From Candidatus Zixiibacteriota bacterium (lineage in GTDB: Bacteria; Zixibacteria; MSB-5A5; GN15; FEB-12), in contig JBFLZR010000005.1 in assembly GCA_040756055.1 (NCBI GenBank), positions 1-64,000 of the forward strand: DNA of 64,000 bases, written 5' to 3'. The notes beneath the pieces are model-generated. The model saw only the letters and a list, made by a program, of their open reading frames with translations. It searched no databases and was not told the origin of the DNA. Positions within the stretch are counted from its first letter, which is position 1. Each line of letters begins with the position of its first letter. This document shows, piece after piece, positions 2,560 through 16,786 of the stretch. Position numbers and translations under genes: made by a program.

Positions 2560-3885
2560 ATGGCCGAGATTAAACGAAAACTGATGGGGAACGGAAGCAA
2601 TCAGCTACTTGCTGAAGACCGGCCAGTGCATGACTGGTTTAGGTTTGTACTGTCATACCCACCGCATTTGGTAAGAGAGTATTTGGGACGTTTCGATGCC
2701 AGGCGGGGGCAGTTCGTTCTGGATCCATTCTGTGGAACCGGCACAACGGTAGTTGAGTGTAAGAAATTGGGTATAGCAAGCATAGGTTTGGAAGTGAATC
2801 CAGCCGTGGCCGCATTTGCTCGGACAAAAACCGATTGGGCAATAAATCCGAGAAGTTTGGAGACTCATGCAAGGGGAATTTACGATAAAGCCTTGGAGAA
2901 ACTTCATAAACATGGGCTCTCAGATAACGGTGAGTTGTTTTCGGCTGCTCAAAATGTGTCGTCCTGCGACGCGGGTCGACTCCGCACCCTTCCCGAAGAA
3001 AGCATGGCTCTTCTAATCAAGAATTCTATAAGTCCGCTACCACTTCACAAAGCCATTGTTTTGTTGGAGACCATAGAAGAAAGCAAAGAAGTTACCTATC
3101 ATCAACACGAAAGACTGGCTTTGGCCAAAACAGTTGTTTATGGCGCAAGCAACCTCCATTTTGGACCGGAAGTGGGGGTAAGCAGGGTGAAAAAGCAAGA
3201 TGCCGGGGTGATTTCGGCATGGTTAAACAATATTCTTCAAATGTGTCGGGACCTACGAGTTGTAGCGGATTGTGGCCCGACGGAGGCCGCCGTGCGATGC
3301 GAGGATTCACGCACTATTGCTCAATCTTTTGACGGTCGCTCTGTTGATACAGTGATCACTTCGCCGCCGTATCCGAATGAAAAGGATTATACTCGGACTA
3401 CTCGCCTAGAGTCTGTCCTTCTTGGTTACATATCAACAAGGCAGGATCTGCGAGACCTGAAGAAGTCCTTTGTTCGTTCGAATACTCGTGGGGTATTTGC
3501 AGGTGATGAGGACGACAAATACATAAGGGGAAACCCCAGAATTGAGAATATCGCGAGGGACATCGAAATCAGAAGAATTGAACTCGGCAAAACATCGGGG
3601 TTTGAACGTCTCTACGGGCGTTTAACAAAACTCTATTTTGGGGGCATGGCGAGGCACTTTGCCGAACTTAGAGAAAGGTTGAGCCCCGGGGCGAGGCTCG
3701 CTTATGTCGTCGGAGATCAGGCATCCTATTTGAGAGTCATGATTAGAACCGGGCAATTACTTGGTGAAATAGCAGAGTCATTAGGGTATGAAGTAACCGA
3801 TATTGATCTTTTCAGAACTCGTTTATCCACAACCACCGGTGAGCAGTTGCGTGAAGAGGTCCTGTTGCTTCGGTGGCCCGGTTAG
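2560..3885 (+). CDS. DNA methyltransferase of a restriction-modification pair (N4-cytosine/N6-adenine type)
   Basis: A 441-residue S-adenosylmethionine-dependent DNA amino-methyltransferase. The cofactor-binding motif I, DPFCGTGTT, is near residue 50. The catalytic motif IV, TSPPY, is near residue 268. This motif I-then-IV order, together with a WFRFVLSYPPHLV segment before motif I, is seen in stand-alone Type II enzymes. It probably protects host DNA by methylating the exocyclic amino group of cytosine or adenine in a short site. The endonuclease-like gene starts 22 bases after its stop. The gene is richer in A+T and in AGA/AGG arginine codons than its neighbours, which suggests acquisition by transfer. 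The target site cannot be read from sequence. Confidence 0.85.
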   Translation: MAEIKRKLMGNGSNQLLAEDRPVHDWFRFVLSYPPHLVREYLGRFDARRGQFVLDPFCGTGTTVVECKKLGIASIGLEVNPAVAAFARTKTDWAINPRSLETHARGIYDKALEKLHKHGLSDNGELFSAAQNVSSCDAGRLRTLPEESMALLIKNSISPLPLHKAIVLLETIEESKEVTYHQHERLALAKTVVYGASNLHFGPEVGVSRVKKQDAGVISAWLNNILQMCRDLRVVADCGPTEAAVRCEDSRTIAQSFDGRSVDTVITSPPYPNEKDYTRTTRLESVLLGYISTRQDLRDLKKSFVRSNTRGVFAGDEDDKYIRGNPRIENIARDIEIRRIELGKTSGFERLYGRLTKLYFGGMARHFAELRERLSPGARLAYVVGDQASYLRVMIRTGQLLGEIAESLGYEVTDIDLFRTRLSTTTGEQLREEVLLLRWPG

Positions 3886-3907
3886 TGTGTTGCGAGGTTA
3901 TGAGGAT

Positions 3908-4705
3908 ATGGGGTCAAAGAGCAAATACAATGAGATTATTGAGCGGATTTTTCTCTCCAAGTTTAGATCTGGAGCCAGCGAAATTAGTTTTGAGCGCTCG
4001 GACATAGTAGCGGTTGCCGAAGACTTGGGGATCGAATACCCCAAAAACTTGGGCGATGTAGTATATAGTTTTAGGTACAGATCTAGTTTGCCAGCGAAAG
4101 TGAGAGCAAAAGCGCCTAAAGGAATGACCTGGATAATCAGAGCAGCGGGGCGAGGGAGGTACCGTTTTAGCTTAGTGCGCGACATCTCTCTCGATCCCAA
4201 CGAAAACATTGCTGAGACCAAAATTCCCGATGCTACTCCAGGGATCGTTAGCAAGCATTCTTTGAGTGATGAACAGGCTCTTCTGGCTAAGGTGAGATAC
4301 AACAGACTTGTTGATGTGTTTACAGGGATCACTTGCTATTCTCTGCAGAGTCATTTGCGAACAACAGTACCCAACATGGGACAGATAGAGACGGACGAAA
4401 TCTACATTGGCGTAGACAAAAGGGGGGTTCAATACGTCATTCCAGTTCAGGCCAAAGGTGGGAAGGACCGCTTGAGTGTGGTTCAGATAGAGCAGGATTT
4501 AGCGATGTGCGAGCACAAGTTCCCTGAACTCGTGTGTCGGCCCGTTGGCGCTCAGTTTATGCGTGAGGAGGTCATTGCTCTATTCGAATTTGAGCTTGGC
4601 AACGGAGGGGTTCGTGTGGCTGGCGAGAGGCATTATCGCTTGGTAGAACCTGACCAAGTATCTGATGCCGAACTCCGGGGTTATCGCTCTCGTCTATCGG
4701 AATAA
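3908..4705 (+). CDS. Probable restriction endonuclease partner
   Basis: A 265-residue protein encoded directly after the DNA methyltransferase. I chose the ATG at 3908, giving MGSKSKYNEII, because the upstream extension overlaps the methyltransferase and looks non-coding; GAGG lies shortly before it. The segment IETDEIYIGVDKRGVQYVI followed by PVQAKGG has the layout of a PD-(D/E)XK nuclease core: acidic residues on one strand and a Q-x-K on the next, as in HinP1I-type variants. It has no helicase, ATPase or specificity-subunit features, so a Type II enzyme is most likely. The assignment rests on the weak nuclease motif plus pairing with the methyltransferase; the family itself is not recognised with certainty. 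Confidence 0.65.
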   Translation: MGSKSKYNEIIERIFLSKFRSGASEISFERSDIVAVAEDLGIEYPKNLGDVVYSFRYRSSLPAKVRAKAPKGMTWIIRAAGRGRYRFSLVRDISLDPNENIAETKIPDATPGIVSKHSLSDEQALLAKVRYNRLVDVFTGITCYSLQSHLRTTVPNMGQIETDEIYIGVDKRGVQYVIPVQAKGGKDRLSVVQIEQDLAMCEHKFPELVCRPVGAQFMREEVIALFEFELGNGGVRVAGERHYRLVEPDQVSDAELRGYRSRLSE

Positions 4706-6017: not shown

Positions 6018-6959
6018 ATGTCTCCTTATGTTTTCAGGGTTTTGAAATTTACCCTGCCGTTATTAGTCGTTTCCTTCTCCGTCATATCGTCATATTCGCA
6101 GGTGGGTGGTCAGACGTTGGATGTTGCCGATGAAGACTGTCTTGCCTGCCATGAGGACTTCGATAAAAGCCTGATGCCGACCACACATAGGCTTTCCTCG
6201 ACCGTAGACAATCCTTCCATGATGATTGCCTGTGTCTCCTGTCACAAAGGAGCGGATATGCATCTGGATGATCCGGGTCGGGGAACGATCGGCAATCCGG
6301 CGGTAATGGAGTCTTTCCGGGTCGAAAAGATATGTACGGATTGCCACGATGCGCATCTGCAGGCCTACACGGCCGGGTTCGACCCGCACGCCGGATTGGA
6401 CCTCTCGTGTACATCGTGTCACACGGTTCACGGAACCAATGAGTATCTGTTGATTGACCCCAGCGGTGGATTCTGCGGAACCTGTCACGTCGCGGTGGTC
6501 AACGAATTTCGCAAACGGTCGAATCATCCTCTGACTGGACAGAATATCGGGTGTATTGACTGTCACAGTCTGGTGTCGGCGGGTGAGCCGGACTACGGAC
6601 ACGGCGGTGGCGTCATCTGCACCAACTGTCATCCGCTGCAGAGCGGACCGTATCTGTTCGAACATGAGGCGACCAGTTCTTTCACTCCTGAGGGCAGTGG
6701 CTGTGTATCGTGCCATTCACCTCACGGCAGTTCCAATGACCGGTTGCTCAATCAGCCGGATGATCGCCTGTGCCTGCAGTGTCACGGAACTCCCCCCGGG
6801 CACCTGACGGCTCACGGCGGTAGCATGGCCGGGTATGCTTGCCTGGACTGTCACAGCGAAATTCACGGGTCATACGATAACCTGTATCTGCTCGATCCGC
6901 AGCTTGGCAGTAAACTTGGAAGCGGCCCCGATGACTGCTTCTGCCATTACTATCGATAG
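6018..6959 (+). CDS. Decaheme c-type cytochrome, MtrA/DmsE type
   Basis: A 313-residue periplasmic multihaem cytochrome. After a signal peptide (about residues 1-28) there are ten CXXCH haem-binding motifs, with first cysteines near 41, 72, 106, 131, 153, 179, 201, 229, 252 and 275. Each should bind one covalent haem c. The C-terminus has an extra CFCH (307-310), one residue too short for a normal site. Size and haem count match MtrA/DmsE-family proteins, which plug into an outer-membrane porin and carry electrons across it. The downstream genes encode exactly such a porin and a surface cytochrome, so I infer a transmembrane electron conduit. The ATG at 6018 is preceded by GGGG at 6007-6010. 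The inner-membrane electron donor is not in this window. Confidence 0.9.
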   Translation: MSPYVFRVLKFTLPLLVVSFSVISSYSQVGGQTLDVADEDCLACHEDFDKSLMPTTHRLSSTVDNPSMMIACVSCHKGADMHLDDPGRGTIGNPAVMESFRVEKICTDCHDAHLQAYTAGFDPHAGLDLSCTSCHTVHGTNEYLLIDPSGGFCGTCHVAVVNEFRKRSNHPLTGQNIGCIDCHSLVSAGEPDYGHGGGVICTNCHPLQSGPYLFEHEATSSFTPEGSGCVSCHSPHGSSNDRLLNQPDDRLCLQCHGTPPGHLTAHGGSMAGYACLDCHSEIHGSYDNLYLLDPQLGSKLGSGPDDCFCHYYR

Positions 6960-6972
6960 GAGGTGGCTCGTT

Positions 6973-8538
6973 ATGAAATACTATAAAGGTGTTTTCACGA
7001 TTGTAGTCGCTGTCCTGTTAGTGGCAGTCATCGCCAATGCCCAGAGTGACAATTACGGGGGTACGGTCAGGGTCGGCTATCTCTTTCTGGACACGGAGGG
7101 AAACCAGAGCTTAAACCAGAATACTTTCAATCTCTACCAGGGGATTGACCTTTCCCTTGAGCAGTTTTCGTATCGGTTCGACAACGGGCTTAATTTCTCG
7201 GCGAATATTCGGAATGCGGCGTTTCGCAACCGCAATGTGGCTCTGAGCGCTTCGAAGACGGGAGCGTGGGGGATAGGGTTTACGCACAATGGTTATCGGC
7301 GACCGTATGACTTCAATGGTGACTTTGAGACTCATCGTTACCGCTCAAGCGGTCAACTGTGGTGGCGGGCCCGTCCCTGGGTGAAATTCTTCGCCGGGCT
7401 GGGAGTCATCAAGAAAAACGGCGAGATGTTGAAGCTGTTTGTGCCGGAGGACGGGATAATCGCCGACAGTGTGGATTACTCGCTCTGGTCATATCACGCC
7501 GGTTTGACATTTCAGGAAAATCGGCGGGTCGGTCAGATCGAGTTTCGTCGCACTACGTTCTCCGACGGTGTCGACTATGATAACGATCGCTCCACCATTC
7601 GTTTTCGGGCCGATGGCTCTATGCCTTTGCCGAACTATGAGAATCTGACGGTCAACGCCGGCTACCAGTATTATCGCAACGCTTTCGAGAGGCGCGTCGA
7701 TACCCTTCAGGCCCACACCTTCTGGGGTGGAGTGCGCTTTGTCAACGATGATGGGTACCTGGTCAGATACAGCTTCATTTTCGACCGGGCGAGGCGCACC
7801 GGAGATGCTACCGATGCTGATAATATTACCCATGCGGTTTATATCGGAAAAAGCTGGCACCGTCGCGGTGGCGTTACCGCCGGCTACAAATATAGACTTA
7901 ACGATGATATCTCCGACGAGTTGACCGGCAACGGCTATTCCATAACCGCCTGGTTCATGCCGGTGGATAAGTTGAGTCTTAAGGCCGGGTATGGATCGGA
8001 GGAAATGGATGTAGATGAAGGCCGGACTCTGACCGGTACCACTGAGCGAAGCAACGGCTGGGCATCGGCGCGGTATCGCGCCGATTTCGGCTGGCTGCGC
8101 GTGAAGGTGCAAAACAGGCAGATGGACAACGAAGATATCGGCAGTTCGACTGACTATATCCGCTTTGCCGGTGATGTTTCGGTTGAGCTTTCCCAATATG
8201 GCATGGCGACCGGTTCTTATTCATACGGTAACGGTGAATACAAGAACGCGTCCGGAGTTTTCGAGTTTGATGAACACGTGTTGAACGGTGAACTGACCAC
8301 GGCGGAATATCGCAATTTCATTTTCGGGTTTGGCGGTATGTATCTTCGCAGTCAGCAGGATCTGGATGTGGAGAGTTTTTCCGTTCGGTTTACCGGTCGG
8401 TATCGTCTCGAGAGCGGGCTTGGGCTGGAATTCGAGTATAGCTCGCACAACTTCGATAATCTCGGCGATACTTCGCCCATCTACAACGAATACTACACAG
8501 ACAATATCGTGCGAGTGGGAATTTCGTACGATTTATAG
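6973..8538 (+). CDS. MtrB/PioB-like outer-membrane porin of an electron conduit
   Basis: A 521-residue outer-membrane beta-barrel. The ATG at 6973 is preceded by AGGAGG, overlapping the end of the cytochrome gene, and gives a signal peptide ending ...AVIANAQ. The longer open frame upstream is an overlap artefact. The mature protein alternates polar and hydrophobic/aromatic residues in many predicted strands, for example TVRVGYLFLDT, YSFIFDRARR and LEFEYSSHNF, and ends in VRVGISYDL, a typical barrel terminus. There is no CXXCH. In MtrCAB-type complexes such a porin sheathes the decaheme cytochrome encoded immediately upstream, 13 bases away. The assignment is from barrel character and operon position; sequence similarity between MtrB families is known to be low. 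Confidence 0.8.
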   Translation: MKYYKGVFTIVVAVLLVAVIANAQSDNYGGTVRVGYLFLDTEGNQSLNQNTFNLYQGIDLSLEQFSYRFDNGLNFSANIRNAAFRNRNVALSASKTGAWGIGFTHNGYRRPYDFNGDFETHRYRSSGQLWWRARPWVKFFAGLGVIKKNGEMLKLFVPEDGIIADSVDYSLWSYHAGLTFQENRRVGQIEFRRTTFSDGVDYDNDRSTIRFRADGSMPLPNYENLTVNAGYQYYRNAFERRVDTLQAHTFWGGVRFVNDDGYLVRYSFIFDRARRTGDATDADNITHAVYIGKSWHRRGGVTAGYKYRLNDDISDELTGNGYSITAWFMPVDKLSLKAGYGSEEMDVDEGRTLTGTTERSNGWASARYRADFGWLRVKVQNRQMDNEDIGSSTDYIRFAGDVSVELSQYGMATGSYSYGNGEYKNASGVFEFDEHVLNGELTTAEYRNFIFGFGGMYLRSQQDLDVESFSVRFTGRYRLESGLGLEFEYSSHNFDNLGDTSPIYNEYYTDNIVRVGISYDL

Positions 8539-8578
8539 GCTATAAAAGGTGGCGTTTTGATGATAACAAGGAGGAAAG

Positions 8579-9637
8579 ATGGATAGACTCAAGTACTTAG
8601 CGGCCGGCCTGGCGTTGCTTCTGTTGATCGCGGCCGGATGTGATCGGGAGATATCGGGCAATGTCGAGTACGATGATGACTTTGCTAACGCCAGTGAAGA
8701 CTGTCTGGCATGTCACAGCGGGTATCTCGATCAGGCGCAGGGAGAGTGGGCAAACTCGACTCATGCGTCGGGAAACAACATTGACTATACCAATCGAGGC
8801 GGTACTGACTGTACCAAATGCCACAATGAGGAAGGTTACCTGTCTTTCCTGGAGACCGGCACGCTTCCCGATGTGCCTTTTGCGAGTGTGAGCGCTATTG
8901 GGTGTTTCACCTGCCACAATCCTCACGAGACGGGCACCCTGGAGCTTCGCCAGACCGAAGCGGTCGCCCTTATAGACGGTGCTGTGTTCGATCATGGCGC
9001 TGCCAACCAGTGTGCCGCCTGCCACCAGTCGAGGTTCGCCGGCAGCGCTATTACCGCCGATCAATCGGTGAACAGCAGGTTCGGACCGCATCACAGCAAT
9101 CAGTCCGATATGATTGACGGAACAGGTGGTTACGAATTCCCCGGCGAAGACTATGAATTCCCGCTGTCGCCGCATGCCAATCAGGTGGATAATGCCTGTG
9201 TCGGTTGTCACATGGGCGATCCGCGAACGCACGTTGGTTACCAGTTGGGCGGCCATTCATTTAACATGGCAGTCGAGGGCATAGACGAAACTCTCGTCGG
9301 CGTGTGCGCAACGAGCAGTTGTCACGGTGAGGATGTCGAGGAGTTTGATTTCGCGGCTGATGAAGACTACGACGGTGATGGCGATATTGAAGGATACCAG
9401 ACTGAAATGGACGGTCTGCTTGAGGAATTGGCGATGTTGCTGACTACCCAGGGAGTTCTTGACGACGGCTCGCCGTTCAGTGGCACTATTGCCGATCCGC
9501 ATTTGGCAGGGGCGCTTTATAATTATGTATACGTTGAGGAGGACCAGTCCAGAGGTATTCACAATTTCAATTATGCCCGCAGCCTTATTGAGGCCTCGAT
9601 TGACTATGTTTCCGGCTTGCCGGTGCCGATGCTATAG
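8579..9637 (+). CDS. Six-haem cytochrome lipoprotein, probable outer-surface partner
   Basis: A 352-residue lipoprotein with the lipobox IAAGC (Cys21). It has five CXXCH motifs (first Cys near 42, 78, 109, 145 and 207) and one CX4CH site, CATSSCH at 243-249, for a probable total of six haems. CX4CH attachment sites are known but uncommon. An acidic DEDYDGDGD segment near 261-269 resembles a calcium-binding loop. The last 80 residues have no haem motifs. It is 40 bases downstream of the porin gene, with AGGAGG before the ATG. The order decaheme, porin, lipoprotein cytochrome suggests it is the cell-surface terminal of the conduit, analogous in role to MtrC/OmcA, though much shorter. A hairpin terminator closes the operon. 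Confidence 0.85.
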   Translation: MDRLKYLAAGLALLLLIAAGCDREISGNVEYDDDFANASEDCLACHSGYLDQAQGEWANSTHASGNNIDYTNRGGTDCTKCHNEEGYLSFLETGTLPDVPFASVSAIGCFTCHNPHETGTLELRQTEAVALIDGAVFDHGAANQCAACHQSRFAGSAITADQSVNSRFGPHHSNQSDMIDGTGGYEFPGEDYEFPLSPHANQVDNACVGCHMGDPRTHVGYQLGGHSFNMAVEGIDETLVGVCATSSCHGEDVEEFDFAADEDYDGDGDIEGYQTEMDGLLEELAMLLTTQGVLDDGSPFSGTIADPHLAGALYNYVYVEEDQSRGIHNFNYARSLIEASIDYVSGLPVPML

Positions 9638-9809: not shown

Positions 9810-9854
9810 CCAATTGCCGGAGTGGTGGAATTGGTAGACACCAGGGACTTAAAA
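9810..9854 (+). repeat. Left attachment-site repeat (45 bp)
   Basis: Identical to 16436-16480. It starts six bases before the tRNA 5' end and ends in the anticodon loop (..GGGACTTAAAA), where tyrosine recombinases often cross over. Confidence 0.85.
9816..9854 (+). pseudogene. Truncated tRNA-Leu(UAA), 5' half only
   Basis: The acceptor 5' strand GCCGGAG, the D arm, and the anticodon 5' stem and loop match the intact tRNA-Leu at 16442 base for base up to CTTAAAA. Then the sequence becomes ACTGATCGC, with no 3' anticodon stem, variable arm, T arm or acceptor 3' strand. It cannot make a tRNA. It is the stub left by integration of the island. Confidence 0.9.
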
Positions 9855-10184
9855 ACTGATCGCGACGAAAATGCATCTGATTGGCGTTCAGCGCATTCCA
9901 TAGCACGGCAATTAGATAGGGTGCGATTGTTTAAGTATTACTTTGGGAGGTTTTTGATTGATTTGGACTGAAAGTGGTCCCAAAATGGTCCCAAGGGTGG
10001 CAGCTTTCGTCGCGATTAGTGGTGCACCTTTTCACTCCGTCTGCTGGACGGGTGTCTGAAAGGAGCTATTTTGCTTGCATGGTCTAGTCATCCGAGTATT
10101 ATTGCTATTTTGTTGGGTGGAGGTGCAGCAATTCGGCTCTTAGTCTGGGCACAGAAGTCGACGCTAGTATGAGAGGAATTACTA
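9855..10184. other. Left end of the island, non-coding
   Basis: No gene is supported in these 330 bases. A short open frame reads ...LFKYYFGRFLIDLD from the tRNA stub but has no start of its own. A paired TGGTCCCAA repeat (listed separately) is present. The ribosome binding site GAGAGGAA precedes the HIT gene. Confidence 0.5.
9975..9994 (+). repeat. Paired TGGTCCCAA direct repeats near the island end
   Basis: TGGTCCCAA occurs at 9975-9983 and 9986-9994, an 11-base period, about one DNA helical turn. Being about 120 bases inside the left attachment site, they could be arm-type binding sites of the lost integrase. That is inference from position and spacing only. Confidence 0.35.
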
Positions 10185-10901
10185 ATGGATGAACAGAATG
10201 TCGCGGTGTCTACCGTGATGCAGGAACGAACCTCTGATGTGGATTGTGAATTCTGTGTTGAATTAGACAGTCCGATAAGATCGCGGTTCGCTAGGGTGTA
10301 CGGGGAAACGCTCGCCTCTCGCGTTATCTGCGAAACGGAATCTTTTGTGGCTCTTCCCACAATTGGCCAGTTGTTTAAAAGCAGCCTGCTGGTATTGCCT
10401 AAGCAGCACGTCGAGACTATTTCGAGTCTTGAAGCTCGTGACCTCAAACATCTCATATCACTTATTGACCGCCTGGCCGGAAAGGTGTCAACCCTGGGAT
10501 TTCCGATTGTCTTTGAGCATGGAGCCAAGTGTGGTACGGGCCATGGTTGCGGCATATACCACGCGCATGTCCATATCGTCCCGGTGCCATCGCAGGTTGA
10601 TTGTGGTCGGCTCCTCGGCCGGCATTGCCAAGACACCACTGATTTGATTGACGCCTGGCTCCAGCTTCGTAACGCCGACAACTACCTTGTGGCCCGGGAT
10701 ACTCACGGATCCACAGGTCTCATTGATCTGCGAGACTCCAAAGACAGTGATTTCCCATCGCAGTACATGCGTAGGCGTCTTGCAGAGCTCTACGGCGTGC
10801 AGAAGTCATGGGATTGGCGTTCATATCAAACAATTGAACCTTGGCTGATTGAAACGGTCCACAAGCTTCGGGTTGATCGTTCGATTCTGCATTCCAGTTA
10901 G
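10185..10901 (+). CDS. HIT-family protein (nucleotide hydrolase/transferase fold)
   Basis: A 238-residue protein whose N-terminal about 150 residues form a histidine-triad domain. The motif YHAHVHIVPV places His126, His128 and His130 in the catalytic HxHxHxx pattern that binds the alpha-phosphate of nucleotides. CEFC at 21-24 is a likely zinc pair as found in some HIT proteins. The C-terminal about 80 residues are an extension without a recognised motif. HIT enzymes hydrolyse nucleoside phosphoramidates and dinucleoside polyphosphates or transfer NMP groups; the substrate here is unknown. It is the first of three closely spaced genes, 18 bases before the APH-like kinase. The ATG has GAGAGGAA upstream. 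Codon usage (AGA, CGA, CTC) differs from the core genes, in keeping with the island. Confidence 0.8.
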   Translation: MDEQNVAVSTVMQERTSDVDCEFCVELDSPIRSRFARVYGETLASRVICETESFVALPTIGQLFKSSLLVLPKQHVETISSLEARDLKHLISLIDRLAGKVSTLGFPIVFEHGAKCGTGHGCGIYHAHVHIVPVPSQVDCGRLLGRHCQDTTDLIDAWLQLRNADNYLVARDTHGSTGLIDLRDSKDSDFPSQYMRRRLAELYGVQKSWDWRSYQTIEPWLIETVHKLRVDRSILHSS

Positions 10902-10919
10902 AGTTTTGAAGGGGTAGAT

Positions 10920-12221
10920 GTGCCAACTGAGCAGATTCCACAGTTCAGAGACATTGTTGCTGAAATAGTCGACGAAGATCAGTTAAGCTGTATTGAGTGG
11001 TCGGCACGCAAATTCCTCAGACACATTGCAACCACCAGACGGTTAGCAGCCAAAGTCTATCCGCACATTCGACGGTACAGCAATCTTCCAATCAATCTCA
11101 AACTCGTATCATTAGAGCGGGTTGGCGCTGCACCGGGGTTTAGTGGTGCCACTGTCACAATAGGCTATTTCTATAGAAACCATCCAGATGACCACCCATC
11201 GAATCCTATGGTCTTGAAGATATCTCGACCTACCATAAAGAAGGGACGCTTGTTCGACAAGCTCAATGATGAATGGAATCGTGCCATGCAGGTTGCTTCC
11301 TACGCGGGACAGGATAAATCCAATTTCGCTTTTCCGATTCATTTGGATAAGGCAAATCAGCGAAGAGAGTACTCCGTGCTCTGGTCGCCGTTTTTCTCGT
11401 CTAAAGCCTTCAGATATCGACCACTGTTAGGTTTGCGAGTGAGTAGTTTGGCCAATGTGCTCAGGGGCAAAGAGACATTGGCAAATACATCATTGAGTGA
11501 ATTCGTGACCACTGCCTTTGACCGTTTAGACGACATGCACTTCCGAATTGGCAGTGGCAGGCTGTGCAGGCGTCGAAACATACTATGCGAATACAAGAGA
11601 TACTTGCGGGGTTGGAGTAGGGGAGAACGCGAGAAATGGGCAGCAATTTGGGGACCTCATACGGAACAGATGACCAAGCAGTTTGGTAGGAGTTGGACCA
11701 ATCCCATTTGGCTGATGGATCAACTCCGGTACAAGAGGCCGAGACTAACTCTTGGCGCAGTTCATGGAGACATTCACCCGCTAAACATCATCATACAAAA
11801 CGATAGATCTCCCGGAGTAATTGACTTCGGCTGGGCAGAGGACGAGTCTCATGTTGCCAAAGACTTCGTCTTGATGGAGTGTAATTTCAGATTCGTCTTT
11901 CTGAAGCCTGATATCCCATTCTCGGCAATTCTGAAGTTGTCTCGTGCTATCGGAGGTAACCTCAGATCGGAGCTAAACTCGGGGAGCGCGCAGTGTGATG
12001 AGTATTATCAGTTGATTAAGGACTTGCGAGAATTGGCCATCGGACGCTTGGGTGAAGGGTCGGACTTTGACATTGAATATGTCCTTCCTCTCTTCTTGAC
12101 AGCTTTTGGACTTCTTAGACATCTGGACTCATTTGAAAACCAGGTATCTGCGCATCTGACCGTTCTCGGTCTATCCGACTATTGTCGAAAGAATGTCCTG
12201 CCAAAGTTGACTGGTACATAG
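10920..12221 (+). CDS. APH/ChoK-like small-molecule kinase
   Basis: A 433-residue protein with an aminoglycoside-phosphotransferase-type kinase fold. Lys100 in MVLKIS is the likely ATP-binding lysine. HGDIHPLNIII (about 281-291) is the catalytic loop with its Asp and Asn. VIDFGWAE (about 299-306) is the metal-binding DFG segment. The core catalytic residues are therefore present. The first about 60 residues and the last about 110 are extensions not typical of antibiotic phosphotransferases, so calling it a resistance gene would be unsafe. It starts with GTG at 10920, with GAAGGGG upstream, 18 bases after the HIT stop. Its neighbours suggest it phosphorylates a metabolite or partner in a shared nucleotide-dependent pathway. 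Confidence 0.75.
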   Translation: MPTEQIPQFRDIVAEIVDEDQLSCIEWSARKFLRHIATTRRLAAKVYPHIRRYSNLPINLKLVSLERVGAAPGFSGATVTIGYFYRNHPDDHPSNPMVLKISRPTIKKGRLFDKLNDEWNRAMQVASYAGQDKSNFAFPIHLDKANQRREYSVLWSPFFSSKAFRYRPLLGLRVSSLANVLRGKETLANTSLSEFVTTAFDRLDDMHFRIGSGRLCRRRNILCEYKRYLRGWSRGEREKWAAIWGPHTEQMTKQFGRSWTNPIWLMDQLRYKRPRLTLGAVHGDIHPLNIIIQNDRSPGVIDFGWAEDESHVAKDFVLMECNFRFVFLKPDIPFSAILKLSRAIGGNLRSELNSGSAQCDEYYQLIKDLRELAIGRLGEGSDFDIEYVLPLFLTAFGLLRHLDSFENQVSAHLTVLGLSDYCRKNVLPKLTGT

Positions 12222-12253
12222 CCTTAGTACTATAATCATGGAAGGCAAGGAGT

Positions 12254-13318
12254 GTGAAAGGCAATCGGCTAGAAGATGTTGGAGAATTCCGCTTGCTGCA
12301 GGAAGTGGTTCTGCCGCTCAGCAGCGATCGGAAAGGCACAATCACGCTTGGAGACGACTGCGCGTCAGTCCGCCTTGAGCGCGGTCACAGCGAGATCGCT
12401 ATTACGTCCGATCCGGCTCCCAAGCCCTTAGTGTGGGATCTTGATTCTGAACCGTACCGGACTTGGGGGTGGTATTCGGTCCTAATCAACGTCAGTGACT
12501 TGGCGGCGGCCGGGGTCGACCCGATTGCCTTTACAAGTTCGGTAGAGGCCCCTCCAGACTTGCTTGTTGCCGACTTTCAGAGCTTCTTCTGTGGAATCGC
12601 GGATGCGTGCAAGAAGATGGGGATAGCGAACGCCGGGGGCAATATCCGGGCAGCCTCGAAATTCGGCTGCCACGGGACCGCAATCGGTGGTGCACAATCG
12701 GGAGAGATTCTCCGAAGATCGGGGTGCAAACCAGGCGACGAGATATTCGCCATAGGTTCTTGTGGTCAGTTCATATCTGCTTTTCTACGGGCGAATCAGG
12801 TGGGTCTTGCCGATGTTTCCGAAAGCGAAAGAACTGCTTTAGTAAGACCGGCACCAAAGGTGCGTGAGATGAGCACTCTTAGGCGAGCTAGTGTTGTCTC
12901 CGCAGCCTCAGACAACTCCGACGGCGTGCTCGGTGCCATATGGAACATATGCGAAAGATCGATCTGTGGGGTCGAGTTAGAGCTGTCCGAGAAGTGCTTG
13001 CCGCTGAATGTCAAACAGGCGGCCAGTAGTCACAACCTTGACCCTTGGAATCTGATGTACTTCTGGGGCGATTGGCAAGTAATTGTAACGGTACCGCCGG
13101 AAAGAGTGAGTGAGTTGAGGAGATTAGCCGACCAAGAACAGATACCCTATACAAGATTGGGTCGTGCCATCGATGGAGAGCCAAGAATCACTGGCAGGTC
13201 CCATCGGCGCTACGGACGATTGAAAATCCTACGTAACGAGAATTTCATCAAGACGTCGTATAACACTGCCAGTAATGATCATGTTGAATATATGCTTCGC
13301 ACAGACTTGTTTGAGTGA
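12254..13318 (+). CDS. ThiL/PurM-superfamily (AIR synthase-related) protein
   Basis: A 354-residue protein of the PurM/ThiL/SelD/HypE fold, which uses ATP to phosphorylate or activate small molecules. VGEFRLLQEV at the start resembles ThiL. GDDCA (33-37), NVSDLAAAGVDP (about 79-90) and GGNIRAAS (about 126) correspond to ThiL nucleotide- and metal-binding segments, with changes: the second usually reads NLSDLAAMGA and the third GGDTT. The third lacks the usual aspartate. A real thiamine-monophosphate kinase role is doubtful because no thiamine genes are nearby. The start is GTG at 12254; AAGGAG lies very close before it, so the exact start is uncertain. It is 32 bases after the APH-like gene. 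I infer a divergent kinase working with the two upstream enzymes. Confidence 0.7.
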   Translation: MKGNRLEDVGEFRLLQEVVLPLSSDRKGTITLGDDCASVRLERGHSEIAITSDPAPKPLVWDLDSEPYRTWGWYSVLINVSDLAAAGVDPIAFTSSVEAPPDLLVADFQSFFCGIADACKKMGIANAGGNIRAASKFGCHGTAIGGAQSGEILRRSGCKPGDEIFAIGSCGQFISAFLRANQVGLADVSESERTALVRPAPKVREMSTLRRASVVSAASDNSDGVLGAIWNICERSICGVELELSEKCLPLNVKQAASSHNLDPWNLMYFWGDWQVIVTVPPERVSELRRLADQEQIPYTRLGRAIDGEPRITGRSHRRYGRLKILRNENFIKTSYNTASNDHVEYMLRTDLFE

Positions 13319-13378: not shown

Positions 13379-16129
13379 GTGCAATTGGATAACTACGATC
13401 GAGGTGGAGTCGACCGGTTCTTTTCTGAGGTTGGGCGTTTTAACGAAGGAATGAAGGTGGTAGGACTTCGATACAAGAGAGTCGATCTGCACATTCATAC
13501 ACCAGCCTCAGGTGATTACAAGGACAAAGGAGCAACCCCAGAGCAGATTGTGGATGCAGCTCTTAAGGCGGATTTGGCGGCGATTGCGGTAACGGACCAT
13601 CAGACCGGTGATTGGGCCGACGGTCTGAAGTCCGCCGCCGAGAAGACACCGCTGGTAGTCTTCCCTGGTGTCGAGCTTCTGGTTACTGGAGGAGAAGAGG
13701 GAGTACATGTCCTTTGTCTCTTCAGTGAAGAAAAAGGCACGGATCACGTCAATCAGTTTCTCAATACTCTCGAAGTCTATGACAAGGAAGGAAAAAAGAC
13801 TCTATGTACGGAGCTTTCCGTAGGGCAAGTAGCCGATAGGTTGGATGCATATGATGCCTCTGGAATAATGATCCTCGCCCATTGTCATTCAACCAAGGGA
13901 GTTCTGGGGGACATCAAGGGAGAAACTCGCAGGGCAATATTCGAGAAACCGAGGCACTGCCTAATAGGTGCAGAAGCATCGGAGGCGAATTTTCGCGATG
14001 CAGATAAGAAAAAGAAGAAAACCCGAGTGGTTGACCTTCTGGATGGAAATGATCCCAATTACCACTACCGGCGGCTGGGGGTTGTTCAAAGCTCAGACTC
14101 TCATAGCCTCGACACCATTGGCAGTACATGCTCTTTCTTCAAGGTGGAAAGCAATATCACTTTGGAGGACATACGTCAATGTCTTGTAGATAGAGACACG
14201 CGCATAAGACAGCCTCACGAGTACGCTGAGATTAGCTATCCCATTGTTCAGAGTTTGGAAGTAACAGGCGGGTTTCTCAGTGATCAGTCATTTGCTTTCA
14301 ACAATGGGTTGAATAGCATCTTAGGCGCAAAGGGATCGGGTAAATCACTATGCGTGGAGTTCCTGAGGTTTGTGCTTAATCAATCCCCATCAAACCCCGA
14401 CCTCAAGTTGGATCATGAGCAGAAGCTCGCGAATTGCCTTGAGACCTACGGCAAAGTGAGTGCGATTCTGTGCGACGAGTCTGGCAAGAGGTACAAGGTG
14501 GAGCGTGAGCTGAAGCCAAACGAAGGTAGTCTCGTTGTAGTGCGTGACATCGAGGCTGGTAATGAAGTGCATTTCGAAGTGGCCGAAGCCTTTCCGGTGC
14601 TATTTCTGAGCCAGAACGAGATAATAAAAATAGCAGAGGACAAATCCGGGCGTGAGCAGCGTCACTTCATAGATCGCTTCTTCGATTTTTACAAGTACGT
14701 TCGAAACACCGAAAGAGCCCTATCGGATCTGATCGAAGCTGATCGAAGGTACTCCGAAGCGCTGAGGGCGCACTACAAAGTCAGGTCGGTTGAAGAGCGC
14801 AAGAAGTCGGTGCAACAGCAGTTGGGCGTAGCGGAACGTCAGCTTACTAATAAGGCATTCACGGAGTATCAGAAGAAGGAATCCATTGGCCGCGCATTGG
14901 TTAATCAGCGGAACTACTTGGAGGGACTAAAGGGCGAAGTTGAAGACTTCATACCTGAGATAGAAGATCTGACTTCGCCAGAAATCGAAGGAGAAGACGC
15001 TAATAATGATCCTGGAGTGAAAAGGACGGCAGACGTAGTCAATAGTACGCACACTGCAGTAGTGTCCGGTTTAAAGGATCTCGCTAAGACTGTAGCTGCT
15101 GGCGTTGTCAGCATTGTCAAGGAAATCGCAGATTTCGAAAAGACGTTTGCACCAGTAAAACAGGAATATGACAAGCTAGTAAAACAGGCTGGCGGGAATC
15201 AAGTGGTGCTAAGCGAGCAGCGAAAGAACATCGTGGCACAGCTTGGAAAACTGGATGCAGAAATTGCACTCCTCAAGGGGAAGGCCTCGCTACTGCGCAC
15301 AATCACTGAGAGAAGAAGGCAAATCGTCTCACGCCTGGAGGAAAACAGAAAGGCATACTTCGAGGCCAGAAAGACTAGATGTGACTATTTTAACAGCAGT
15401 TCAGGCGGCCTGCTGAATGTCGAGATGTCAGAACAAGCCGATACAAGTATATTCGCGGAGAATCTGCTGCGCTTCAAGAAGGGTAGTTGGCTCCGAGATG
15501 AGGAAATGCAGGCAATCGCATCCAAGGTGGCCCCGAGGGATTTAATCAGATCCATCTTGGCATATGAATGGAAGGGGCGAAAGACAACCGATGAAGCCAG
15601 ATGCATAAGTGAGCCATCGAATGTTGAACAAGAAAAGATACTGAAGCTCTTCAATCACTTATTGGACAGCTATAGCTACGAGGATATTCTCGCGCTTCAG
15701 CACAAGTCTACACCTGACGACAAGCCATCCATCAGCTACAGAGTTGGCTCCGAGTACAAGCCGTTGGCAGAGCTCTCCACGGGGCAGAAAGCAGTTGCTC
15801 TGCTTCTGATGGCCCTAAGCGATGGCAAGTTCCCAATCGTGATCGATCAGCCGGAAGATTCTCTGGACCTCCGTTCAATTTGGGAAGACGTATGTTACAA
15901 GGTCAGAAACACGAAGGAACGCAGGCAGTTCATTTTCACTACTCACAATTCTTCTGTAGCTGTAGCCTCGGACTCGGATAGTTTCTGCATCATGGAAGCC
16001 GATGCTTCATCGGGCCGAGTGCTTCTTACTGGATCCATGAACCAGCCTGATATCCGGGATCAAGTCATTAAGTACCTCGAAGGTGGTCCTTCCACGTACG
16101 ATCACAAACGAAAGAAGTACAACTTGTGA
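13379..16129 (+). CDS. TrlF-type PHP-domain and SMC-like AAA ATPase
   Basis: A 916-residue two-part protein. The N-terminal third is a PHP metal phosphoesterase with VDLHIHTPASG near 36-46, AVTDHQ, FPGVEL, LAHCHS and QSSDSHS. The rest is an SMC/ABC-type ATPase: Walker A GAKGSGKS near 316, a long coiled-coil-forming middle (about 430-700), the signature STGQK near 800, Walker B IVIDQPEDSLD near 820 and an H-loop TTHN near 855. This layout matches TrlF-family AAA-like ATPases, which occur in defence contexts and are thought to use the PHP domain as a nuclease. The frame opens at a GTG (13379); the ATG at 13451, with AAGGA just before it, is an equally good start. It sits 60 bases after the ThiL-like gene, so joint expression with it is possible. 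Confidence 0.85.
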   Translation: MQLDNYDRGGVDRFFSEVGRFNEGMKVVGLRYKRVDLHIHTPASGDYKDKGATPEQIVDAALKADLAAIAVTDHQTGDWADGLKSAAEKTPLVVFPGVELLVTGGEEGVHVLCLFSEEKGTDHVNQFLNTLEVYDKEGKKTLCTELSVGQVADRLDAYDASGIMILAHCHSTKGVLGDIKGETRRAIFEKPRHCLIGAEASEANFRDADKKKKKTRVVDLLDGNDPNYHYRRLGVVQSSDSHSLDTIGSTCSFFKVESNITLEDIRQCLVDRDTRIRQPHEYAEISYPIVQSLEVTGGFLSDQSFAFNNGLNSILGAKGSGKSLCVEFLRFVLNQSPSNPDLKLDHEQKLANCLETYGKVSAILCDESGKRYKVERELKPNEGSLVVVRDIEAGNEVHFEVAEAFPVLFLSQNEIIKIAEDKSGREQRHFIDRFFDFYKYVRNTERALSDLIEADRRYSEALRAHYKVRSVEERKKSVQQQLGVAERQLTNKAFTEYQKKESIGRALVNQRNYLEGLKGEVEDFIPEIEDLTSPEIEGEDANNDPGVKRTADVVNSTHTAVVSGLKDLAKTVAAGVVSIVKEIADFEKTFAPVKQEYDKLVKQAGGNQVVLSEQRKNIVAQLGKLDAEIALLKGKASLLRTITERRRQIVSRLEENRKAYFEARKTRCDYFNSSSGGLLNVEMSEQADTSIFAENLLRFKKGSWLRDEEMQAIASKVAPRDLIRSILAYEWKGRKTTDEARCISEPSNVEQEKILKLFNHLLDSYSYEDILALQHKSTPDDKPSISYRVGSEYKPLAELSTGQKAVALLLMALSDGKFPIVIDQPEDSLDLRSIWEDVCYKVRNTKERRQFIFTTHNSSVAVASDSDSFCIMEADASSGRVLLTGSMNQPDIRDQVIKYLEGGPSTYDHKRKKYNL

Positions 16130-16435: not shown

Positions 16436-16480
16436 CCAATTGCCGGAGTGGTGGAATTGGTAGACACCAGGGACTTAAAA
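16436..16480 (+). repeat. Right attachment-site repeat (45 bp)
   Basis: Identical to 9810-9854. Here the repeat is the 5' half of the intact tRNA-Leu. Confidence 0.85.
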
Positions 16481-16530
16481 TCCCTTGCTCCGTAAGGGGC
16501 GTGCCGGTTCGAGTCCGGCCTCCGGCACCA
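16442..16530 (+). tRNA. tRNA-Leu (anticodon UAA)
   Basis: An 89-base class II tRNA. The acceptor strands GCCGGAG and CTCCGGC pair fully. The anticodon stem AGGGA/TCCCT encloses CTTAAAA, giving anticodon UAA (codon UUA). A long variable arm (GCTCCGTAAGGGGC) marks it as leucine type. The T arm GCCGGTTCGAGTCCGGC is normal. The 3' ACCA is encoded in the DNA. It lies at the right edge of the island and its 3' end is repeated downstream. Confidence 0.97.
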
Positions 16531-16724
16531 ACATCGTTGGTTTTAACCAGACCCCGCGTTCAGCATCTACCGCAAGGACAACGTAAAGCCGACAAGTCGG
16601 TTCGAGTCCGGCCTCCGGCACCAACATCGTTGAATTTATCCAGACCCACTTTTAGCAGCGACCACGAGGGGAGTATGAAGCCGACAAGTCGGTTCGAGTC
16701 CGGCTTCCGGTACCAGCGTCGCTG
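16505..16724 (+). repeat. Three tandem copies of the tRNA-Leu 3' end (about 93-bp period)
   Basis: The 35 bases from the T arm through ACCA and 9 bases beyond (16505-16539) recur exactly at 16598-16632, 93 bases later. They recur with 5 mismatches at 16690-16724, 92 bases after that. The sequence between copies is also related (CCAGACCC..., then AAGCCGACAAGTCGG before copies 2 and 3), so whole units were duplicated and drifted. Copies 2 and 3 lack any 5' tRNA half. In copies 2 and 3, CCGAC-AA-GTCGG can form a small hairpin. If transcribed with the tRNA, these would form a repeated tail RNA. Confidence 0.85.
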
Positions 16725-16786
16725 GATTTGTCCGCGCTCAGCCGACAGAAGCTCCAATTCCATCTTATCTGGAGAAGAAATCTTTG

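What the first reader, a model, noticed from the sequence alone, without database searches (positions are those of the whole stretch)
10185..13318. Three-gene HIT / APH-like kinase / ThiL-like cassette, possibly an undescribed system
Three enzymes that all handle nucleotide phosphates are packed with gaps of 18 and 32 bases in a mobile island beside a TrlF-type ATPase. None has a housekeeping partner nearby. The kinase keeps its catalytic residues, the HIT triad is intact, and the ThiL-like protein has altered substrate motifs. This could be a nucleotide-signal or modification pathway used in defence, or a small-molecule (antibiotic-type) modification route.
Basis: inference. Interest (0 to 1): 0.75.

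Follow-up and report, generated by a model that had tools for sequence, protein, structure and literature searches.

The report
Mobile HIT–kinase–ThiL-like enzyme operon
Three adjacent genes for nucleotide-phosphate-type enzymes turn out to travel together as the core of an undescribed operon in very different bacteria and an archaeon, mostly in mobile or phage-defence islands, so they probably form one biochemical system whose product is still unknown.

Summary
Searching 84,980 genomes with the HIT protein alone gave seven strong relatives; in six (three alphaproteobacteria, a Bacteroidales MAG, Pseudomonas mandelii, the archaeon Methanoperedens) the same kinase and ThiL-like genes lie beside it in the same order. 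The seventh contig is too short to tell. Fuller operons add a dCTP-deaminase/dUTPase-fold protein, a C39-like cysteine protein and a NUDIX hydrolase.

The ThiL-like protein keeps metal/ATP residues but lost residues nearly invariant in true ThiL. The kinase belongs with TCAD9/APH. TrlF is absent from the other six loci, so it is co-cargo.

The window copy sits in a 6.6-kb island between two copies of a tRNA-Leu 5' half; known or candidate defence genes flank several other copies.

Best reading: an intracellular two-step phosphorylation route on a nucleotide-like molecule, probably for phage defence. Linkage as a system is well supported, on seven loci; the chemistry and defence role are inference. 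No description was found in PADLOC-DB 2023 or open-access papers.

The parts
10185..10901 (+). HIT-family protein, 238 aa, with N-terminal CxFC, histidine triad H126/H128/H130 and a family-specific C-terminal extension (SQ..R...W.W)
10920..12221 (+). TCAD9/APH-family small-molecule-type kinase, 433 aa, catalytic loop HGDIHPLN and metal-binding IDFGW intact
   Evidence: APH-type structures lead the fold search, with a low-confidence model
12254..13318 (+). ThiL-like AIR-synthase-family protein, 354 aa; metal/ATP residues kept, ThiL-invariant substrate-side positions lost; C-terminal LRNENF extension
13379..16129 (+). TrlF-family PHP + AAA-like ATPase: separate cargo of the same island, not part of the trio
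   Evidence: NF045780 383.6/350 bits; absent from other trio loci
9810..9854 (+). left repeat: 5' half of tRNA-Leu up to the anticodon loop (attachment-site-like)
   Evidence: 45/45 identical to 16436-16480
9855..9935 (+). element-end sequence similar to that following other tRNA-Leu half genes in the phylum
   Evidence: alignment; loci
16436..16530 (+). right repeat, part of the intact tRNA-Leu(UAA) gene at 16442-16530

Best explanation
The trio is the core of a horizontally mobile operon, HIT - [DCD/dUTPase] - [C39-like] - TCAD9/APH kinase - ThiL-like - [NUDIX], that works as one intracellular pathway on a nucleotide-like small molecule. Proposed steps: the APH-type kinase puts a first phosphate on an alcohol group; the ThiL-like enzyme puts a second phosphate on that phosphate (or activates an oxygen with ATP); the HIT protein makes or breaks a nucleotidyl bond on the product; the DCD/dUTPase-fold and NUDIX proteins, where present, trim or sanitise related nucleotides. 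The purpose is most likely phage defence (an antimetabolite or signal made or released on infection), since the operon has no exporter and no polyketide/peptide synthase and several copies sit beside defence genes. Shown: conservation, order, linkage, intact catalytic residues, changed ThiL pocket motifs, island context. Inferred: substrate, order of steps, defence role.
For: A search with HIT alone recovered kinase + ThiL-like next to it in 6 of 7 strong relatives, in the same order, with gaps of -56 to +32 bases inside the operons; none of the more distant HIT loci has the kinase. Pairwise identities of kinase and ThiL-like co-vary across the seven loci (Mantel r 0.91, p 0.0016; HIT r 0.62-0.66, p 0.014-0.029). 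All 7 kinases match TCAD9; PMC7159879 suggests that APH-type kinases in conflict systems act on small molecules. The ThiL-like proteins fall on one side of a branch apart from the phylum's ThiLs (95/96 support). Accessory DCD, dUTPase and NUDIX and MazG or HD dGTPase-like proteins beside related HITs point to nucleotides. Contexts: HepT/nucleotidyltransferase and SspD (L072), PRTase_III-A, CARF6 and a methyltransferase (L076), an LmuA/Avs1a-like metallo-beta-lactamase-fold protein (L073), DUF2971 (L074), relaxase (L070), transposases (L071).
Against: No substrate or activity is known. The window copy lacks DCD, C39-like and NUDIX, so the trio alone must suffice or borrow chromosomal enzymes. 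Only six other full loci were found, partly because the scan used strict seeds. PADLOC proximity is suggestive only: a control of 10 genes beside ordinary HIT loci gave one clear and a few marginal hits. The kinase model is low confidence (pLDDT 65). A signalling, pool-editing or detoxification role fits the same parts list.
Confidence: 0.4

Rival explanations
1. Nucleotide-pool defence: the operon lowers or edits (d)NTPs on infection, with the DCD/dUTPase, NUDIX, HIT and HD-type partners doing the depletion and the two kinases controlling it.
For: DCD or dUTPase close by in 5 of the 6 other trio loci (L070-L074); an HD dGTPase-like protein between HIT and ThiL-like in viral-collection contig L123; DCD directly before HIT in six Streptomyces loci.
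Against: The window and P. mandelii copies have no such enzyme in the cassette; two small-molecule-type kinases are not needed for depletion; DCD is an accessory, the kinases are the constant part.
Confidence: 0.2
2. Small-molecule modification: detoxification (antibiotic or nucleoside inactivation) or synthesis of a secondary metabolite.
For: APH-type structures are the nearest solved folds of the kinase (weak model); the C39-like protein's best structural matches include the biosynthetic proteins AziU2-U3 and CtaG; relatives of the HIT protein lie in biosynthesis-like clusters with cysteine desulfurase, PRPP-synthase-like and PfkB-like genes (assigned by eye).
Against: No exporter, PKS or NRPS seen in the trio operons; defence or mobile neighbours in most loci.
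Confidence: 0.2
3. Thiamine salvage: a ThiK-like kinase followed by ThiL making thiamine pyrophosphate; attractive because the window genome and its taxonomic family show no ordinary ThiL.
For: L070 kinase's best NCBIfam match is thiamine kinase YcfN/ThiK, E 1e-4; besides P0003 the window genome has only weak matches to the ThiL-like profile, of the score and length of purM/purL (inferred).
Against: Positions near-invariant in 29 comparison proteins of the phylum (H of xHF 28/29, E of GGEDY 27/29, aromatic of G[WYF]xHF 27/29) are changed or missing in all 8 cassette proteins; score below the ThiL cut-off; HIT, DCD and C39-like have no known role in salvage.
Confidence: 0.06
4. Chance neighbours in an island.
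For: Islands collect unrelated genes; TrlF next door is such a case.
Against: Same three genes, same order and strand, in six other distant genomes.
Confidence: 0.02

Closest known systems
TCAD9 (PF19974), APH-type kinase domain associated with vWA-MoxR-VMAP ternary conflict systems
   Same: All seven cassette kinases match it; kinase of small-molecule type in conflict contexts
   Different: No vWA, MoxR or VMAP gene in the window island; here it is fixed to HIT and ThiL-like partners
ThiL, thiamine-monophosphate kinase (TIGR01379)
   Same: Same fold family; GDD, SD, GGN/D and DxSD metal/ATP residues
   Different: Below the family cut-off; xHF, GGEDY and G[WYF]xHF motifs replaced; extra C-terminal segment with LRNENF
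HIT superfamily hydrolases/transferases (Hint, Fhit, GalT branch)
   Same: Histidine triad and overall domain
   Different: About 95-aa C-terminal extension with invariant SQ, R and WxW; fixed operon partners
Nucleotide-editing anti-phage enzymes (dCTP deaminase and dGTPase defence; from my own knowledge)
   Same: DCD/dUTPase-fold partners in fuller operons; HD dGTPase-like partner in L123
   Different: The nucleotide-editing enzyme is optional here and absent from the window cassette
TrlF / Ppl PHP-ATPase defence proteins
   Same: The neighbouring gene in the window island is a TrlF-family member
   Different: Not linked to the trio elsewhere

Membership tests
HIT superfamily | H-x-H-x-H triad and Pfam HIT score over cut-off | tested here: met
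   H126/H128/H130; 32 vs 21.5 bits
TCAD9 / APH kinases | Pfam score over cut-off and intact HGDxHxxN / DF[GE] motifs | tested here: met
   49.2 vs 40 bits; motifs invariant in 7 sequences
vWA-MoxR-VMAP ternary system | vWA, MoxR and VMAP genes beside the effector | tested here: not met
   The window island holds only HIT, kinase, ThiL-like and TrlF as identified genes; flanks of other loci were only partly annotated
ThiL (thiamine-phosphate kinase) | Score over the curated equivalog cut-off | tested here: not met
   162.9 vs 184.15 bits; two relatives 125 and 98
ThiL (thiamine-phosphate kinase) | Substrate-side motifs xHF, GGEDY, G[WYF]xHF (read as TMP contacts from my own knowledge) | tested here: not met
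   H, E and aromatic changed or missing in 8 of 8 cassette proteins; kept in 28, 27 and 27 of 29 comparison proteins
ThiL (thiamine-phosphate kinase) | Metal/ATP acidic residues | tested here: met
   D34, D35, D53, D82, D220, S222, D223 in the window protein, shared with ThiL
Known anti-phage system (PADLOC-DB 2023) | A strong model match for HIT, kinase or ThiL-like | tested here: not met
   Only weak motif-level hits: ThsC 1e-4, PD-T4-6 6e-5; none for ThiL-like
Anti-phage defence system | Protection in a phage challenge | not testable with these tools
   Needs bench work
tRNA-integrated mobile island | Flanking direct repeat of the target tRNA | tested here: met
   45-bp repeat
tRNA-integrated mobile island | Own integrase in the island | tested here: not met
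   No recombinase-like ORF of 80 aa or more recognised between the repeats
tRNA-integrated mobile island | Empty site in a close relative | tested here: inconclusive
   G027 has a tRNA-Leu half near the matching gene but other genes beside it
TrlF-linked system | TrlF beside the trio in other genomes | tested here: not met
   0 of 6 loci

The most novel reading that the evidence does not exclude
A new defence system in which a TCAD9/APH kinase and a ThiL-like phosphate kinase together build a diphosphorylated nucleotide-like effector (signal or antimetabolite), with HIT, DCD/dUTPase and NUDIX proteins controlling its release or clearance, mobilised as a cassette across bacteria and archaea.
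Probability: 0.35. Interest if true: 0.88.

Novelty: categorically new. Interest (0 to 1): 0.7.

Why it matters
A fixed pairing of a small-molecule-type kinase with a ThiL-like phosphate kinase, kept across a wide span of bacteria and one archaeon and carried in mobile islands, implies an unknown phosphorylated metabolite. If it is a defence system it would be a new kind of nucleotide-based immunity with directly testable enzymes; if not, it is an uncharted metabolic pathway. Caveat on novelty: the check covers PADLOC-DB 2023, Pfam, NCBIfam and open-access papers only.

Tried and rejected
Kinase as a query: no relatives in plasmids, phages (25) or viral contigs (26; one search gave one weak hit, L160, a glycosyltransferase-like ORF without partners), and none in genomes with single-sequence seeds; the seeds were too strict, since relatives do exist. 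ThiL-like in plasmids and phages: only ordinary ThiL-like matches. HIT in phages and viral contigs: weak or no matches; one search gave 11 loci, one of them long (L059, phage-like, without kinase or ThiL-like). First HIT alignment too diverse to search. E. coli genomes with the P. mandelii DNA: nothing. Thiamine salvage considered and ranked low. TrlF as a partner rejected. Literature searches for the gene set found nothing.

Full report
What was checked. The window lies in contig C5 of a 3.3-Mb, 12-contig genome that is 97.7% complete. The three reading frames are present as described: 238, 433 and 354 codons on the + strand with gaps of 18 and 32 bases. The first is a HIT protein with the triad H126, H128, H130. 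The second is a kinase of the TCAD9/APH group with an intact catalytic loop and metal-binding Asp. The third is an AIR-synthase-family protein whose best named match is ThiL, but below that family's cut-off. A fourth gene, 60 bases further on, is a TrlF-family PHP/ATPase.

Island. A 45-base exact repeat, the 5' half of tRNA-Leu, lies at 9810-9854 and again at 16436-16480 inside the intact tRNA-Leu gene. The four genes lie between the copies. No recombinase was recognised there. The three other genomes of the genus have no match to the kinase or HIT protein and no ThiL-like match of this type. Similar tRNA-Leu halves followed by related sequence occur elsewhere in the phylum, so the island appears to belong to a wider class of integrated elements. 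This supports mobility; excision itself was not shown.

Is it a system? The kinase alone found nothing with strict seeds. A search with a HIT alignment found 23 loci in 84,980 species genomes. Seven match the HIT strongly over nearly its whole length (E at or below 6e-24). Six of these, L070 Hyphomonas, L071 Methanoperedens, L072 an alphaproteobacterium, L073 Marinicaulis, L074 a Bacteroidales MAG and L076 Pseudomonas mandelii, carry both the kinase and the ThiL-like gene downstream, in the same order and strand. The seventh (L075) is a 4.8-kb contig with NUDIX, HIT and DCD pieces and ends soon after. The search used only HIT, so the linkage of the other two was not built in. Among the weaker HIT loci none has the kinase, and only viral-collection contig L123 has the ThiL-like protein. 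Pairwise identities of kinase and ThiL-like track each other closely (Mantel r 0.91, p 0.0016, seven loci), those of HIT less so. Linkage and co-inheritance are therefore well supported, on a small sample.

Fuller form. In the three alphaproteobacterial loci the operon reads HIT, DCD, C39-like, kinase, ThiL-like, NUDIX. Bacteroidales has HIT, C39-like, kinase, ThiL-like, dUTPase; Methanoperedens has a DCD 415 bases downstream. DCD and dUTPase were identified by Pfam, the NUDIX by weak Pfam/NCBIfam matches and a good match to solved structure 3e57. The C39-like protein has no fitting Pfam family, but a good AlphaFold model (pLDDT 86) whose best solved match is a C39-like peptidase, followed by AziU2-U3 and CtaG; C29, H149 and D165 are invariant in four sequences. 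The window has none of these extras near the trio; its genome has one dCTP deaminase elsewhere.

The ThiL-like protein. In an alignment of eight cassette proteins and 29 AIRS proteins of the phylum, nearly all ThiL by their motifs, the metal and ATP residues are shared by both groups (window D34, D35, D53, D82, D220, S222, D223). The positions H of xHF, E of GGEDY and the aromatic of G[WYF]xHF, near-invariant in the comparison set, are changed or missing in all eight cassette proteins, which have GDW and in most cases an N-rich NENF-like motif instead. That these are thiamine-phosphate contacts rests on my own knowledge of ThiL annotation; the paper consulted (PMC6416309) says that the pocket is formed by one subunit and is conserved, without naming these residues in the text read. 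In a tree the cassette proteins fall on one side of a branch with 95/96 support. The comparison was with ThiLs of this phylum only.

The kinase. All seven match TCAD9 and six match APH. The model is weak (pLDDT 65), and the fold search, led by APH(3')-Ia and a steroid kinase, says only that it is an APH-type fold. TCAD9 is described as a domain linked to vWA-MoxR-VMAP conflict systems (PMC10910872); the authors who described those systems suggest that their APH-type kinases act on small molecules (PMC7159879). No vWA/MoxR partner was found in the window island.

Context. P. mandelii: DNA methyltransferase, PRTase_III-A, CARF6 protein. L072: HepT and nucleotidyltransferase pair, SspD. L073: metallo-beta-lactamase-fold protein resembling LmuA/Avs1a. 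L074: DUF2971/PDC-S31. L070: relaxase; L071: transposases. Window: TrlF, and a type II methyltransferase/restriction pair 5 kb upstream outside the island. A control of ten genes beside five ordinary HIT loci gave one clear match and two proteins with marginal matches, so the contrast is suggestive, not a measured enrichment.

Mechanism. Two ATP-dependent phosphotransferases are the constant pair, which suggests stepwise phosphorylation of a small molecule; HIT enzymes act on nucleotidyl bonds; the optional partners act on nucleotides (established knowledge of the families). The lack of an exporter argues against a secreted antibiotic. I favour an intracellular nucleotide-like product used in defence, at 0.4, ahead of pool editing (0.2) and modification or detoxification (0.2).

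Limits. Seven loci in all; collection scans are exhausted; PADLOC-DB dates from 2023 and only open-access papers could be searched, so a description published elsewhere cannot be excluded.

Noticed in passing
window 9810-9854 and 16436-16480; L143, L144, L146, L140: Half genes of tRNA-Leu recur in the phylum, in G088 as five same-strand copies 3-8 kb apart with a tyrosine recombinase just beside the first; the stretches between carry varied genes, including a DUF262-like candidate defence protein. It looks like an integron-like or serial-integration array.
   Followed up: partly
window 16505-16739: The 3' half of tRNA-Leu is present three times in tandem, about 92 bases apart, counting the copy in the intact tRNA gene.
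   Followed up: no
window 2560-4705: Type II methyltransferase and a strong match to a PADLOC type II restriction enzyme (REase_II, 1e-116) in overlapping frames.
   Followed up: no
window 6018-9637: Two multihaem-cytochrome-like proteins with CxxCH motifs around a beta-barrel-like protein: possibly a porin-cytochrome conduit (by eye).
   Followed up: no
L006, L077-L081: Six Streptomyces loci share a different cluster around the same HIT family: MazG-like, methyltransferase, DCD, HIT, a 313-aa protein without family match, and cysteine desulfurase.
   Followed up: partly
L007 6007-9663; L082 1794-5907: HIT followed by a membrane-type protein and a large protein ending in a MazG-like domain, shared by a Caulobacter plasmid and a Methylumidiphilus MAG.
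   Followed up: no
L004 4370-9656: Parabacteroides plasmid: ThyX-like protein, AAA-type ATP-binding protein, HIT, MazG-like protein, dihydrofolate reductase in a row.
   Followed up: no
L123 3542-9047: Viral-collection contig with a HIT-family protein, an HD dGTPase-like protein and a ThiL-like protein but no kinase: a possible variant.
   Followed up: partly
own genome and its taxonomic family: No ordinary ThiL was seen in the window's genome or its family, only matches of purM/purL score and length, although other families of the phylum have ThiL.
   Followed up: no
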